From positions 1 through 64,000 of the forward strand of contig JAJZAI010000001.1 in NCBI GenBank assembly GCA_021799495.1: a DNA stretch of 64,000 nt. Direction: 5' to 3'. Shown here piece by piece: positions 8,108 to 30,401 of the stretch (positions are counted from its first letter, which is position 1; each line of letters starts with the position of its first letter). Under the pieces are notes generated by a model. The model searched no databases. It was not told the origin of the DNA and saw nothing but the letters and a program-made list of their open reading frames with translations. Origin of the DNA: Deltaproteobacteria bacterium (GTDB taxonomy: Bacteria > Desulfobacterota > Binatia > Binatales > Binataceae). The position numbers and the translations under genes are program-made.

Positions 8108-8632
8108 GTGCATAAAGCAATTTCGATGGCGATTCAGACGGGCAACGGACAGGGCGGAATCTTCGCGTCGATCAACATCACGCCGCTCACCGACATTTTC
8201 CTGGTGCTGCTGATCATCTTCATGGTCGCGACCGCGGTCACGATCGAATCGGCCGCGCACGTCGATTTGCCGCAGATGCAACAGCAGCCGGCCAATCAGC
8301 AAAACAAGACGGTGACCGTCACCTACACCGCCGATCATCACATCTTCGTCAACCAGCAGCCGGTCGTGGAGGGCGACCTTGGCGCGGCGATCAAAGAGGC
8401 GCTCGGCAAATCAACCAGCAAGGTCGTCGTCTTCGACGGCGACGCGCGGGTGATTTTGGGCGATATGGTGCGGATTCTCGATATCGCCAAGGGAGCGGGA
8501 GCGGAAAGCGTCGCGCTCGCCGTATCCGGCGAAACGGGCGGCGGCGCGAGCGAGCCGCAACCCACGCCGATGGCCGAACCCGAGGCGCCCGCTCCCGAAG
8601 CGGTCGCGCCGTCGGAAGGCGGAATTCCGTAA
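8108..8632 (+). CDS. ExbD/TolR biopolymer transport protein (copy 2)
   Basis: SINITPLTDIFLVLLIIFMVATAVTIES; paralogue of the preceding gene. Confidence 0.92.
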   Translation: MHKAISMAIQTGNGQGGIFASINITPLTDIFLVLLIIFMVATAVTIESAAHVDLPQMQQQPANQQNKTVTVTYTADHHIFVNQQPVVEGDLGAAIKEALGKSTSKVVVFDGDARVILGDMVRILDIAKGAGAESVALAVSGETGGGASEPQPTPMAEPEAPAPEAVAPSEGGIP

Positions 8633-26688: not shown

Positions 26689-27384
26689 ATGCGATCGACG
26701 CACGCCCATTCTTTCATTTCGCCCACCGCGCCGCGGCCTGAAAATTCCGGGGGCGCGCAGGCGAATCCGGAATCTCGGAGCGCGTCCGGAGCGAAATTGC
26801 CGCGCTCGTTCTACGCGCGTCCGGTCCTGACCGTCGCCCGCGATTGTATCGGCAAAATTCTCGTCCATCGCACCGCCGAAGGCGAAACCGCCGGACGCAT
26901 CGTGGAGGCCGAAGCTTATCGCGGACCGCTCGATCGCGCCGCGCACAGCTCACGCGGCCTGACCCGGCGCACGGCGGCGATGTTCGGTCCTCCGGGACAC
27001 GCCTACGTCTATTTTCTCTACGGCGTCTGCTGGGCGTTCAATATCGTCGCCGCCAGCGAAGGCGAACCGCACGCGGTGCTGATTCGCGCGCTCGAACCGG
27101 TTCGCGGCGCCGATCTCATGGCGGTGCGGCGGCGGAAAACCGCGCACGATCGCGAACTCACGAACGGTCCCGGCAAGCTAACACAGGCAATGGCGATTAC
27201 CGGCGCCGACTACGGCCGCGACCTTTGCGGCGATTCGCTCTATCTCGAAACGGCGGCGATTCCATGCGGACGGATCGGCCGCTCCGCGCGAATCAATGTC
27301 GCTTACGCCGGCCGATGGGCCGGACGGCCGTGGCGATTTTACGAGCGCGGCAATCGCTACGTATCCGTCGCGCCGCGCGCCTGA
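26689..27384 (+). CDS. 3-methyladenine DNA glycosylase (AAG/MPG family)
   Basis: LPRSFYARPVLTVARDCIGKILVHR; GRIVEAEAYRGPLDRAAHSSRGLTRRTAAMFGPPGHAYVYFLYGVCWAFNIV. Confidence 0.95.
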   Translation: MRSTHAHSFISPTAPRPENSGGAQANPESRSASGAKLPRSFYARPVLTVARDCIGKILVHRTAEGETAGRIVEAEAYRGPLDRAAHSSRGLTRRTAAMFGPPGHAYVYFLYGVCWAFNIVAASEGEPHAVLIRALEPVRGADLMAVRRRKTAHDRELTNGPGKLTQAMAITGADYGRDLCGDSLYLETAAIPCGRIGRSARINVAYAGRWAGRPWRFYERGNRYVSVAPRA

Positions 27385-27416: not shown

Positions 27417-27455
27417 GCAGTGCCCTAATTTGGGCATTAACATACTTGACGAACC
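27417..27455 (+). repeat. Left terminal inverted repeat
   Basis: gcagtgccctaatttgggcattaacatacttgacgaacc. Confidence 0.88.
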
Positions 27456-27474
27456 ATGCTTCATTTACTAGATT
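27446..27474 (+). promoter_or_regulatory. Putative transposase promoter embedded in the left TIR
   Basis: TTGACG (27446-27451), 17-nt spacer, TAGATT (27469-27474). Confidence 0.5.
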
Positions 27475-27484
27475 TGAAGCATGG
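27454..27484. promoter_or_regulatory. Inverted repeat spanning the transposase start codon
   Basis: CCATGCTTCA (27454-27463) / TGAAGCATGG (27475-27484), 11-nt loop; includes the ATG at 27481. Confidence 0.65.
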
Positions 27485-28452
27485 ACACGCGATACCCCCG
27501 TTCGCTGACGGATGCGATTGTCTACTTCAGCGACTACGAACACTGCCGCCGGTTCATGGTCGAGATGCGTTGGCCGGACGGAATAATCCGTTGCCCAACT
27601 TGCAACTCCGAGAAGGTCACATATCTGGCCAATCAGCGTCGCTGGAAATGCTATTCCAAGCATCTCCGACCGCAGTTTACTTTGAAGATTGGAACGATCT
27701 TCGAGGATTCGCCGATTGGATTGGAGAAGTGGCTTCCCGCCATGTGGCTGCTCGCGAACTGCAAGATCGGAATCAGTAGCTATGAACTGGCGGATGCTCT
27801 TGAAGTTACGCAGAAAACTGCTTGGTTCATGCTGCAAAGGCTCCGGCTCGCAATGCAGGATGATACGCCAGACAAAATGAGCGGCGAGATTGAGGCTGAT
27901 GAAACCTTCATTGGCGGCCTCGCTCGCTTCATGCACAAAGCCAAGAAAGCCAAGATTACCGGCACTGACGGGATGGGAAAGGTCGCTGTGATGGGGCTCC
28001 TTGAGCGTCACGCTGGCGACGAGATGAGCCGCGTTCGGGCGACGGTTCTCCGTAACGTCAGGCGCGCATCGCTCCATGCCAACATTCGAGAGAACGTCGA
28101 GTCCGGTTCCGAGATGTTCACCGACGCGCTGCTGAGCTATGCAGGTCTCGATCCAGAGTACGCACATAACGTGATCGACCACGCGGAGAAATACGCAGAA
28201 GGTCGCGTCCACGTGAACGGAATTGAGAATTTCTGGTCGCTCTTGAAGCGCCGCCTCAAAGGAACCTATATCGCCATCGAGCCCTATCATCTGTTCCGTT
28301 ATATCGATGAGCGGGTCTACCGCTTCAACAATCGCAAAGTATCCAGCGCTCTACGTTTCATCGGCGTTGCCAAATCCGTTACTGGTCGTCGCCTCACCTA
28401 TAAAGACCTAATCGATCAAGGCCCGCATTCGCCTCAGCCCTTACCGGCCTAG
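27481..28452 (+). CDS. IS1595-family transposase
   Basis: N-terminal zinc-ribbon-like CPTCNSEKVTYLANQRRWKCYSK; SGEIEADETFIGG; VNGIENFWSLLKRRLKGTYIAIEPYHLFRYIDERVYRFNNR. Confidence 0.94.
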   Translation: MDTRYPRSLTDAIVYFSDYEHCRRFMVEMRWPDGIIRCPTCNSEKVTYLANQRRWKCYSKHLRPQFTLKIGTIFEDSPIGLEKWLPAMWLLANCKIGISSYELADALEVTQKTAWFMLQRLRLAMQDDTPDKMSGEIEADETFIGGLARFMHKAKKAKITGTDGMGKVAVMGLLERHAGDEMSRVRATVLRNVRRASLHANIRENVESGSEMFTDALLSYAGLDPEYAHNVIDHAEKYAEGRVHVNGIENFWSLLKRRLKGTYIAIEPYHLFRYIDERVYRFNNRKVSSALRFIGVAKSVTGRRLTYKDLIDQGPHSPQPLPA

Positions 28453-28491
28453 ACAGTGGAGAGGTCCGCATCGGCGTGGTAGGCTGATACC

Positions 28492-28632
28492 ATGAAACCA
28501 ACAAACAAGTTAGCCAAACTGCGGTTTGAGCCTCAGCAAGCATTGGACAACTTACGAGCGTTGACGCATAAAGTCCTGACTCATACCAAGGAAGTGGCAA
28601 CTTCCAAAAAGAGCACCAAGCGTCGTGCCTAA
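28492..28632 (+). CDS. 46-aa basic hypothetical protein inside the transposon
   Basis: MKPTNKLAKLRFEPQQALDNLRALTHKVLTHTKEVATSKKSTKRRA; below the ORF-track cutoff; stop overlaps the stop of the convergent DUF262 gene. Confidence 0.5.
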   Translation: MKPTNKLAKLRFEPQQALDNLRALTHKVLTHTKEVATSKKSTKRRA

Positions 28633-30311
28633 AATGCCCACGCCTTCACTGCAAGATCTGCAAGCTTCTCTTGCCGCTTCGCGATCGTGGCCGGTCCCCA
28701 CGGTTCATTACACTGGGCTGCTTCTTGTGTTAGAGAAAATTTCGATGCCGTAAGCGTTGGTTTCTTCAAGTCGTAAGAAACGTTTCCTAGCTTCGAATTC
28801 GGAGTGGATTGTAATAGCGCGAGATTGCCTAACCTCGCATAGAAAGCTTTTCGATCCGCTTCCGAAATATAGTTCCAGCTCGCATCAGGATTCTCTGGGA
28901 GAATGTGTTCCAGCGTGACGTCCGGCGCGTCGTTCGGAACATATTGTGCCTCTTTTTCTCCGTCTGCCGTTCGCTGAAGGACGTTTAAGTAATATCGGGC
29001 TAGAGGTTCCCAAGTAATGCGGGCAGTGGCTACGCCATTCCGAAATCTTTCATCGTCGGGGATTATCGTCGACATCGCCTTCGCTGCTTCCGCCGTAGTC
29101 TTGATTTCTCCGTCAGTTATCCCTTTGGCTGCTCGGTTATAATGTATTTCCAAAGAGCCGCCGAACACGCCGCACATTGCACAGCGTACCGTCCATACTA
29201 CGGCAGCGTCCAACAATCGAACGAATTCGTTAGCGGAAAATTTATTTAATGCGGCTAGAAGCATCGGTCTTAATTGCTTAACGCCATACGTCGCGAGCAG
29301 TGACAATTGTTGTCTAGCGGCGGGCGTGTGCGATCTCCACATTTCGCTTGCGGGGTTGAGAAGCGCCTGATATTTGACTGCGTTTTGCGCTAATTTCGCA
29401 CTAAAGGTAACGGCCTCTTGCACGTTGGTTATTTTTTCTTTGATTCGGTCGTACAGGAAACGTCCCCTGATATGCCCATTTTCGGAGATCCACACGTGGC
29501 GCACGTAATCGAGCTGAGCATCTTCAGGCTTAGGTAGCGTCTCAATAACTCCCGTCATTGTTTGCCAGTTAGCCATTATTTCTTGTAGGCGGCCATTTGC
29601 AGTTGCATATAGTCGATTTTTAAGGAGGTCTACCGAGGTAAGTTGAAGCCCGCGATCGTTCATAGTCTCAAAGATAATGTAAGCTGTGCGCTCATCTGCG
29701 ACTATGACCTTGATGATTCGAGCCTTCCCTTCTATGTAGTCAACCCAATTATGCAGTTGCTGGAGCGCGTCGGGTTTTGAATAAGGGGCGACGATCGCTG
29801 CTACGTGCTCTGCGGCTAGTTGGGCGGCGCGACTAATTCTCCTGTGCGAACCAGGGGCTGCTGGCGTCTTCGCCTCTGACTGAAGGACTCTTTTGATGAA
29901 AAACTCGTTATCGTTTAGATTAAGAGTTAATTTCGGCGTCGGAACATGAGTCCTACGATCAACCGCAGACAGAAATTGCGAATCAATGATTTCGGCTGTG
30001 GTATCCCCAACCTGCTTGAAATGGTCCCGTATTGCCGCGAGCAGAATTGCGGTTGTAGCTAAGCGTTGCTGGCCATCGTTAACTTCAAGCTGTCCGTCTG
30101 GTCGCTTAACCACCACGATTGAACCGAGAAAATATTCCGGACTTGATTTGTCAGCGATCGCGCCTGCGAGATCGGTAAACAAATCCGTTATCTGCTCGGG
30201 CTCCCATCTATAGTTGCGTTGATGGACTGGAACGCAGAGACGATTGTCCTTGAGAACTTTGCCCAAGGTGTCGCGCTCGATCTCGATTTGCTCCATCACT
30301 GCCGTTGGCAT
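28629..30311 (-). CDS. DUF262/DUF1524 (GmrSD-like) domain protein, candidate defense nuclease
   Basis: DUF262: LCVPVHQRNYRWEPEQITDLFTDL, FLGSIVVVKRPDGQLEVNDGQQRLATTAILLAAI; DUF1524 HNH-like: VTLEHILPENPDASWNYI...LGNLALLQSTPNSKLGN. Start at MPTAVMEQ with GAGGG upstream; a GTG start at 30362 is possible. Confidence 0.9.
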   Translation of the reverse strand: MPTAVMEQIEIERDTLGKVLKDNRLCVPVHQRNYRWEPEQITDLFTDLAGAIADKSSPEYFLGSIVVVKRPDGQLEVNDGQQRLATTAILLAAIRDHFKQVGDTTAEIIDSQFLSAVDRRTHVPTPKLTLNLNDNEFFIKRVLQSEAKTPAAPGSHRRISRAAQLAAEHVAAIVAPYSKPDALQQLHNWVDYIEGKARIIKVIVADERTAYIIFETMNDRGLQLTSVDLLKNRLYATANGRLQEIMANWQTMTGVIETLPKPEDAQLDYVRHVWISENGHIRGRFLYDRIKEKITNVQEAVTFSAKLAQNAVKYQALLNPASEMWRSHTPAARQQLSLLATYGVKQLRPMLLAALNKFSANEFVRLLDAAVVWTVRCAMCGVFGGSLEIHYNRAAKGITDGEIKTTAEAAKAMSTIIPDDERFRNGVATARITWEPLARYYLNVLQRTADGEKEAQYVPNDAPDVTLEHILPENPDASWNYISEADRKAFYARLGNLALLQSTPNSKLGNVSYDLKKPTLTASKFSLTQEAAQCNEPWGPATIAKRQEKLADLAVKAWAF

Positions 30312-30342
30312 CTTTGTCCCTCGTTGATGAAAATCGCATTCA

Positions 30343-30372
30343 AGCATAGGCGACCCCTTCACGGTTCGTCAA
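30343..30372 (-). promoter_or_regulatory. Putative inward promoter from the right TIR driving the DUF262 gene
   Basis: On minus strand TTGACG (30372-30367), 18-nt spacer, TATGCT (30348-30343). Confidence 0.4.
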
Positions 30373-30401
30373 GTATATTAATGCTCTAATTTGAGCACTG
30401 C
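30363..30401 (-). repeat. Right terminal inverted repeat
   Basis: Reverse complement gcagtgctcaaattagagcattaatatacttgacgaacc. Confidence 0.88.

What the first reader, a model, noticed from the sequence alone, without database searches (positions are those of the whole stretch)
27417..30401. IS1595-family transposon carrying a DUF262/DUF1524 nuclease as cargo
Seen: two 39-bp imperfect TIRs about 3 kb apart enclose an IS1595-type transposase, a 46-aa ORF and a minus-strand DUF262+DUF1524 gene, with AT-richer interior than flanks. Established: IS1595 elements can carry passenger genes; DUF262/DUF1524 architectures occur in GmrSD, BrxU and SspE, which restrict modified or phage DNA. Inference: this is a compact mobile defense transposon in which a single-protein restriction factor moves by a simple DDE transposase. 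No 8-bp target duplication was found, so the insertion may be old or an end is misplaced.
Basis: partly seen in the sequence, partly recalled or inferred. Interest (0 to 1): 0.75.

Follow-up and report, generated by a model that had tools for sequence, protein, structure and literature searches.

The report
IS1595 transposon carrying a defence-type nuclease
A small jumping gene has carried a predicted virus-fighting DNA-cutting enzyme into this bacterial chromosome, and its relatives carry many other swappable nuclease or toxin-antitoxin-like cargos, so very simple transposons appear to shuttle defence-type genes between bacteria.

Summary
The finding is real, but its ends were placed 16 bp too far out. 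The element is 27433-30385 (2,953 bp). It has 23-bp terminal repeats (21/23 identical) and a perfect 8-bp target duplication, CTAATTTG, at 27425-27432 and 30386-30393. Two congeners have the same flanking genes with no element between them. The transposase is IS1595 family. The passenger is a GmrSD-type DUF262+DUF1524 protein. Its best profile is HEC-06, its nearest fold is DndI, and its NTPase and His-Me nuclease motifs are intact. Its phosphorothioate-sensing tyrosine is replaced by His, and no dndC gene was found in 41 family genomes. About 30 relatives in the same bacterial family share the backbone: transposase, GG-tipped repeats holding a TTGAC -35-like box, convergent cargo, and often a conserved small basic protein (the 46-aa ORF). 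Their cargos differ: DUF3800, HNH, VRR-NUC, PIN+DUF433, Panacea and others. DUF262 cargo recurs in IS1595 elements of other phyla and in IS1-like elements. The IS1595-borne DUF262 genes are not one clade (p-AU 0.0024). Antiphage activity is inferred, not shown. Verdict: a new variant of passenger-carrying IS1595 elements.

The parts
27433..30385 (.). Complete IS1595-family transposon (2,953 bp), corrected ends
   Evidence: 8-bp TSD and GG/AG-tipped TIRs; absent from the same locus in G011 and G013
27425..27432 (+). Left copy of target-site duplication CTAATTTG
   Evidence: 8/8 identical to right copy; same geometry in related elements
30386..30393 (+). Right copy of target-site duplication CTAATTTG
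27433..27455 (+). Left terminal inverted repeat GGCATTAACATACTTGACGAACC
   Evidence: 21/23 to right end; GG tip and TTGAC conserved in most relatives
30363..30385 (-). Right terminal inverted repeat AGCATTAATATACTTGACGAACC
27417..27424 (+). Left arm of the palindromic target (GCAGTGCC), wrongly read as TIR
   Evidence: 6 of 7 arm pairs complementary with the right arm; 8 of 29 target sites reach 6 of 7 or more, 0.27% of random positions do
30394..30401 (+). Right arm of the palindromic target (AGCACTGC)
27446..27474 (+). Putative TIR-borne promoter for the transposase: -35 TTGACG (27446-27451), 17-bp spacer, -10 TAGATT (27469-27474)
   Evidence: -10-like hexamer 16-18 bp after TTGAC in 16 of 23 transposase ends, control 9%
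30343..30372 (-). Putative TIR-borne promoter for the cargo: -35 TTGACG (30367-30372), 18-bp spacer, -10 TATGCT (30343-30348)
   Evidence: 8 of 18 cargo ends, control 9%
27481..28452 (+). IS1595-family DDE transposase, 323 aa, zinc ribbon and DDE motifs intact
   Evidence: PF12762 3e-34, PF12760 8e-9, NF033547 4e-48; motif columns conserved
28492..28632 (+). Conserved small basic protein (46 aa) next to the transposase; backbone gene, function unknown
   Evidence: homologues at the same place in about ten elements with different cargo; codon-position differences 0.49/0.38/0.67
28629..30311 (-). Passenger: GmrSD-like DUF262+DUF1524 protein (HEC-06 profile), likely start at Met18 of the longest ORF (which begins at 30362)
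   Evidence: PF03235 2e-30, PF07510 2e-19; HEC-06 4e-163; residues 1-17 unstructured in the model; start choice is inference
26689..27384 (+). Left flanking gene, 3-methyladenine DNA glycosylase (not part of the element)
   Evidence: PF02245; adjacent to the right flank without the element in L018/L019

Best explanation
This is an intact-looking IS1595-family transposon that inserted between a DNA-glycosylase gene and its neighbour, most likely after this lineage split from its sequenced congeners. The backbone is a DDE transposase, a small basic protein and two 23-bp ends. Each end carries an inward TTGAC -35-like box, so the transposase reads in from one end and the passenger from the other, tail to tail. 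The transposase inserts the unit at AT-rich, pseudo-palindromic 8-bp sites, often in the middle of longer palindromes, duplicating 8 bp. The passenger is a single-protein GmrSD-like restriction factor: DUF262 binds and hydrolyses NTP and senses a feature of invading DNA, and the DUF1524 His-Me finger then nicks or cuts it. It protects the host and thereby the transposon. The anatomy, target duplication, empty sites and recurrence are shown; the promoter role, the NTPase/nuclease chemistry and phage restriction are inferred.
For: Domains. Exact 8-bp TSD with GG-tipped TIRs here and in relatives. Empty sites in two congeners. The same transposase+DUF262 architecture in L020 (2,979 bp, TSD 7/8) and in L047 from Acidobacteriota (2,988 bp, TSD 8/8), and DUF262 with further genes in L078 and L108 from Bacteroidota. 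DUF262 also in IS1-like elements. TIR promoter signal. DGQQR and H486/N513/N522 invariant in 22 aligned relatives. AlphaFold model, mean pLDDT 86, matches DndI (9jfl, E 7e-19), SspE and BrxU. Papers report HEC-06 as an active, independently working GmrSD-like antiviral protein (PMC12988326; PMC11411939).
Against: No experiment. Only a single copy in this genome, so there is no sign of recent activity beyond the clean target duplication. Other cargos in the clade did not hit PADLOC profiles, so not every cargo is a recognised defence gene. The modification sensed, if any, is unknown. The right TIR tip is AG rather than GG. The -10 signal is weaker at the cargo end (8 of 18) and absent at several cargo ends.
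Confidence: 0.62

Rival explanations
1. The passenger acts mainly as an addiction or competitor-exclusion gene of the transposon (against plasmids or other mobile DNA, or as a toxin-like stabiliser), not as an antiphage gene.
For: Other cargos of the clade include toxin-antitoxin-like pairs (PIN+DUF433, Panacea). DndI is toxic to cells lacking its DNA modification (PMC11662687).
Against: It is a single gene with no antitoxin partner in the element. HEC-06 relatives are reported as antiviral on their own.
Confidence: 0.2
2. The DUF262/DUF1524 protein is an accessory transposition factor that cuts or nicks target DNA for the transposase.
For: It is a nuclease-type protein inside a transposon; several other cargos are nuclease-like too.
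Against: Near relatives of the same transposase carry unrelated cargo. The same DUF262 family occurs in IS1-like elements and at loci where no such IS was found.
Confidence: 0.05
3. The passenger is a neutral hitchhiker, captured by chance and without selected function.
For: IS1595-type elements are known to pick up passengers; single copy here.
Against: Full-length ORF with all catalytic motifs intact. IS1595-borne DUF262 genes are not one clade (AU test p 0.0024) and IS1-like elements carry DUF262 too, which argues for selection.
Confidence: 0.1
4. The 39-42-bp repeats are the true TIRs and the insertion is old without a target duplication.
For: Inverted repeat of 42 nt.
Against: CTAATTTG reads 8/8 as a direct repeat but only 6/8 as an inverted one. 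In relatives the sequence outside the GG tip varies while the 8-bp direct repeat persists.
Confidence: 0.02

Closest known systems
[quoted passage not shown] cited in PMC12561309)
   Same: Transposase family, GG-tipped TIRs, 8-bp AT-rich target duplications (as in ISApl4, PMC12561309), passenger genes
   Different: DUF262/DUF1524 passenger, conserved small basic backbone ORF, mirrored TIR promoter motif and palindrome-centred targets. The 2009 paper could not be read here, so overlap with its passengers is untested.
HEC-06 (PADLOC candidate; GmrSD-like stand-alone antiviral protein)
   Same: Best profile, E 4e-163 over the whole protein; single gene
   Different: Sits in an IS element rather than inside an Hma defence cluster
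DndI and SspE (phosphorothioate-sensing DUF262+DUF1524 proteins)
   Same: Fold (DndI 9jfl E 7e-19, TM 0.67), DGQQR and HNH-type motifs
   Different: The position of DndI Y25 is His47; no dndC in 41 family genomes at E 1e-20
BrxU / GmrSD type IV restriction enzymes
   Same: Domain order and motifs; weaker fold match to BrxU 7p9k (E 3e-6, TM 0.35)
   Different: Low similarity; substrate preference not testable here
IS1-like transposons carrying DUF262 (L066, L082, L087, L090, L103, L060, L059)
   Same: Same passenger family, 8-bp target duplication (six of the seven; L059 only a 6-bp one), 3-4.2 kb size; L059 passenger is sister to the window's
   Different: IS1-like transposase (best NCBIfam hit IS1, below cut-off) and GGTAGTG-type ends

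Membership tests
IS1595 family | IS1595 DDE transposase domain | tested here: met
   NF033547 164 bits (cut-off 75), PF12762 119 bits (cut-off 27)
IS1595 family | Zinc ribbon and intact DDE residues | tested here: met
   PF12760; D of EADETFIGG, D of FTDALLSY and E of GIENFW conserved
IS1595 family | TIRs with GG tip | tested here: met
   Left GG; right AG, one mismatch
IS1595 family | 8-bp target-site duplication | tested here: met
   CTAATTTG twice, 8/8
IS1595 family | Transposition activity | not testable with these tools
   Needs a transposition assay
GmrSD-type (DUF262+DUF1524) restriction enzymes | GmrSD_N and GmrSD_C domains in one chain | tested here: met
   PF03235 and PF07510 above cut-off
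GmrSD-type (DUF262+DUF1524) restriction enzymes | QR, DGQQR and His-Me H...N...N motifs | tested here: met
   Q48 R49, D96-R100, H486, N513, N522 invariant in 22 rows
GmrSD-type (DUF262+DUF1524) restriction enzymes | Cleaves modified-cytosine DNA | not testable with these tools
   Biochemical assay needed
HEC-06 | PADLOC HEC-06 profile over the full length | tested here: met
   PDLC04157, residues 23-576, E 4e-163
HEC-06 | Stand-alone antiviral activity | not testable with these tools
   Reported for HEC-06 in PMC12988326 and PMC11411939, not for this protein
SspE / DndI phosphorothioate-dependent systems | PT-sensing tyrosine in P-x-Y-Q-R | tested here: not met
   His47 here; Y, N, F and H all occur among relatives
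SspE / DndI phosphorothioate-dependent systems | Partner DNA-phosphorothioation genes in the genome | tested here: not met
   No DndC (TIGR03183) at E 1e-20 in this genome or 40 relatives; SspA-D not searched

The most novel reading that the evidence does not exclude
A compact transposon backbone (transposase, small basic protein, promoter-bearing ends) works as a general plug-in shuttle for one- to three-gene nuclease or toxin-antitoxin cargos. Cargo is exchanged between IS1595 elements and even with IS1-like elements, and the unit is delivered into the centres of DNA palindromes.
Probability: 0.45. Interest if true: 0.72.

Novelty: new variant of a known kind. Interest (0 to 1): 0.57.

Why it matters
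Defence genes are usually tracked in islands, prophages, plasmids and large transposons. Here a 3-kb, one-transposase element with a clean target duplication carries a GmrSD-like gene. The same gene family sits in IS1595 and IS1-like elements in several phyla, and sister transposases carry other nuclease or toxin-antitoxin-like cargos. If general, minimal IS-type transposons are a route by which single-gene defences spread, and cargo lists of passenger-carrying IS elements become a place to look for new defence genes. Target palindromes and TIR promoters give testable rules for where such units land and how any captured gene is switched on.

Tried and rejected
Equating the 42-nt inverted repeat with the TIR: rejected by the TSD geometry. 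The target palindrome as a multicopy repeat: a pattern search found no other full copy in the genome, only one IS-like end on C84 and single hits in two relatives. A phosphorothioate-sensing role by analogy with the best fold match: not supported. SspE profile in the genome at E 1e-10: none. Plasmid relatives of the passenger: 9 records, all under 40% identity, not followed further. Phylum-wide search for the transposase clade outside the family: one more genome, G231. A full 87-row AU test did not finish; a 31-row LG+G4 version did. Rfam and tRNA scans around the element: nothing.

Full report
OBSERVATION. Between the arms lie an IS1595-type transposase (27481-28452, +), a 46-aa ORF (28492-28632, +) and a minus-strand ORF of 577 aa (28629-30362). 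GC falls from 0.63-0.70 in the flanks to about 0.49-0.56 inside. The transposase matches PF12762, PF12760 and NF033547; the minus-strand gene matches GmrSD_N (PF03235) and GmrSD_C (PF07510), i.e. DUF262 and DUF1524.

TRUE ENDS. When related elements were collected and their ends compared, a constant geometry appeared: an end like GGCAATAATATACTTGACTNACC with an 8-bp direct repeat immediately outside. In the window this gives GGCATTAACATACTTGACGAACC (27433-27455), AGCATTAATATACTTGACGAACC (30363-30385, reverse strand) and CTAATTTG at 27425-27432 and 30386-30393. The element is therefore 27433-30385, 2,953 bp. Of 29 elements examined, 27 have an 8/8 duplication and two (L020, L029) 7/8. CTAATTTG is 8/8 as a direct repeat and only 6/8 as an inverted one, so it is not part of the TIR.

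EMPTY SITES. In two genomes of the same genus (G011, G013) the left and right flanking genes are contiguous and alignable at about 90% and 85% identity without the element. The window's pre-insertion site also contains about 30 bp, including the target palindrome, that the congeners lack; where those bases came from is unexplained.

TARGETS. The duplicated octamers have consensus C-(T/A)-A-A-T-T-(A/T)-G. Outside the octamer, 8 of 29 sites continue as palindromes with at least 6 of 7 complementary pairs, against 0.27% of random positions in the same loci. The window site is GCAGTGCC-CTAATTTG-AGCACTGC.

PROMOTERS. TTGAC lies at the same place in most TIRs, reading inwards. At transposase ends a TATAAT-like hexamer peaks sharply at a 17-bp spacing (16 of 23 ends with at least 4 of 6 matches at spacings 16-18, control 9%); at cargo ends 8 of 18 do. 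In the window both ends qualify (TAGATT at 17 bp; TATGCT at 18 bp). The cargo -10 lies downstream of the annotated GTG, and residues 1-17 are unstructured in the model, so the likely start is Met18 at 30311 (inference).

SMALL ORF. Peptides similar to the 46-aa product lie just downstream of the transposase in about ten other elements carrying different cargo. Differences by codon position in six of them are 0.49, 0.38 and 0.67, as expected for a translated gene. It had no Pfam match and three homologues had no NCBIfam match. It belongs to the backbone, not to the cargo.

CARGO OF RELATIVES. In the same bacterial family 17 of 41 genomes have related transposases. Their elements carry, mostly convergent to the transposase: DUF3800 (L021, L028, L035, L131; weaker in L032, L133), HNH (L021, L028), VRR-NUC (L021), PIN-like or DUF5615 with DUF433 (L023, L029; a similar pair in L033 judged by sequence only), Panacea (L034, L139), DUF29 (L134), DUF7689 (L036), a HARE-HTH protein (L022), a proteasome-like protein (L031) and several unknown proteins. 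Nine such cargos had no PADLOC match at 1e-5, so 'defence-like' is a domain-level reading for them. In the transposase tree the L020 element (DUF262) groups with L025 and L023, which carry other genes: cargo changes between close relatives.

DUF262 AS RECURRENT CARGO. The window protein matches HEC-06 best (E 4e-163). A scan of one genome per species plus a phylum search gave 87 loci. IS1595 transposases with DUF262 between TIRs occur in L020 (another genus of the family), L047 (Bryobacterales), L078 and L108 (Bacteroidota). Eight-base duplications with matching ends enclose DUF262 in 11 of about 86 loci against 0.67 per round in a mispairing control. Most of the others are IS1-like: transposases whose best NCBIfam hit is IS1 at 56-64 bits, below the cut-off of 100, with GGTAGTG-type ends. 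On a 31-row tree the window passenger is sister to the one in the IS1-like element L059 (95/89), with L047 next (99/95), and a single clade of IS1595-borne DUF262 genes is rejected (p-AU 0.0024, LG+G4). The simplest reading is that the cargo has been acquired more than once.

PASSENGER FUNCTION. QR, DGQQR and the His-Me residues H486, N513 and N522 are intact and invariant in 22 aligned proteins. The AlphaFold model (mean pLDDT 86.3, pTM 0.66) matches DndI (9jfl, E 7e-19, TM 0.67), then SspE and BrxU. DndI senses phosphorothioate through Y25 (PMC11662687); the aligned residue here is His47, and relatives have Y, N, F or H. No dndC was found in this genome or 40 relatives. A DndI/SspE-type partnership is thus not supported, while a stand-alone GmrSD-like mode is. 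Papers state that HEC-06 has antiviral activity (PMC12988326) and that HEC-05 and HEC-06 work independently (PMC11411939); the source is a preprint not available here. Sensing of a DNA feature, NTP use and cutting are inferred from these families.

NOVELTY. IS1595 elements at the border between IS and transposon, and their relation to IS1, are known (title of Siguier et al. 2009, cited in PMC12561309; the paper itself could not be read, and that its elements carry passengers is my own knowledge). ISApl4 in PMC12561309 shows the same 8-bp AT-rich duplications. Literature searches found no description of DUF262/HEC-06 as IS cargo, of the small ORF, or of palindrome-centred IS1595 targets, but the library holds only open papers. 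I rate it a new variant of a known kind.

LIMITS. Many genomes are metagenome-assembled. Element ends were chosen by looking for duplications, though the TIR tip coincided each time and chance 8-mers are rare. No activity was measured.

Noticed in passing
L040:100-4335, L103:3822-8057, L060:1492-5468, L066:3745-6906, L082:3153-7014, L087:3838-7404, L090:3865-6853: DUF262/DUF1524 genes inside IS1-like elements with GGTAGTG-type ends and perfect 8-bp target duplications, in several phyla; L040 and L103 are the same contig.
   Followed up: partly
window 28492-28632: The 46-aa ORF belongs to a conserved small basic protein family found next to transposases of this IS1595 clade; function unknown, no Pfam match.
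   Followed up: partly
L103:6993-7866: The IS1-like DUF262 element of a Desulfobacteraceae MAG also holds a Panacea-like ORF (by sequence, not scanned) and a 140-aa ORF.
   Followed up: no
L024, L027, L034, L036 target sites: Four IS1595 elements sit in the centre of similar palindromes, (C)GAAACCTC..GAGGTTTC(G), and L036 has further copies of such a palindrome at 2680-2709 and 8521-8550: possible REP-like repeats used as landing sites.
   Followed up: no
G000:C84:34747-34784 (L037:5052) and G000:C44:120-830 (L002): An IS1595-like end with a weak C-terminal transposase match on C84, and a truncated related transposase with a GTAGTGTCCTAATTTGGG end on C44, in the same genome.
   Followed up: partly
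window 27417-27432: Several IS1595 target sites (window, L026, L035) resemble the tip of the IS1-like ends, GGTAGTGTCCTAATTTG: possible nested insertion into other IS ends.
   Followed up: no
window 27469-27483: The transposase ATG lies about 7 nt after the -10-like hexamer, so its mRNA may be leaderless.
   Followed up: no
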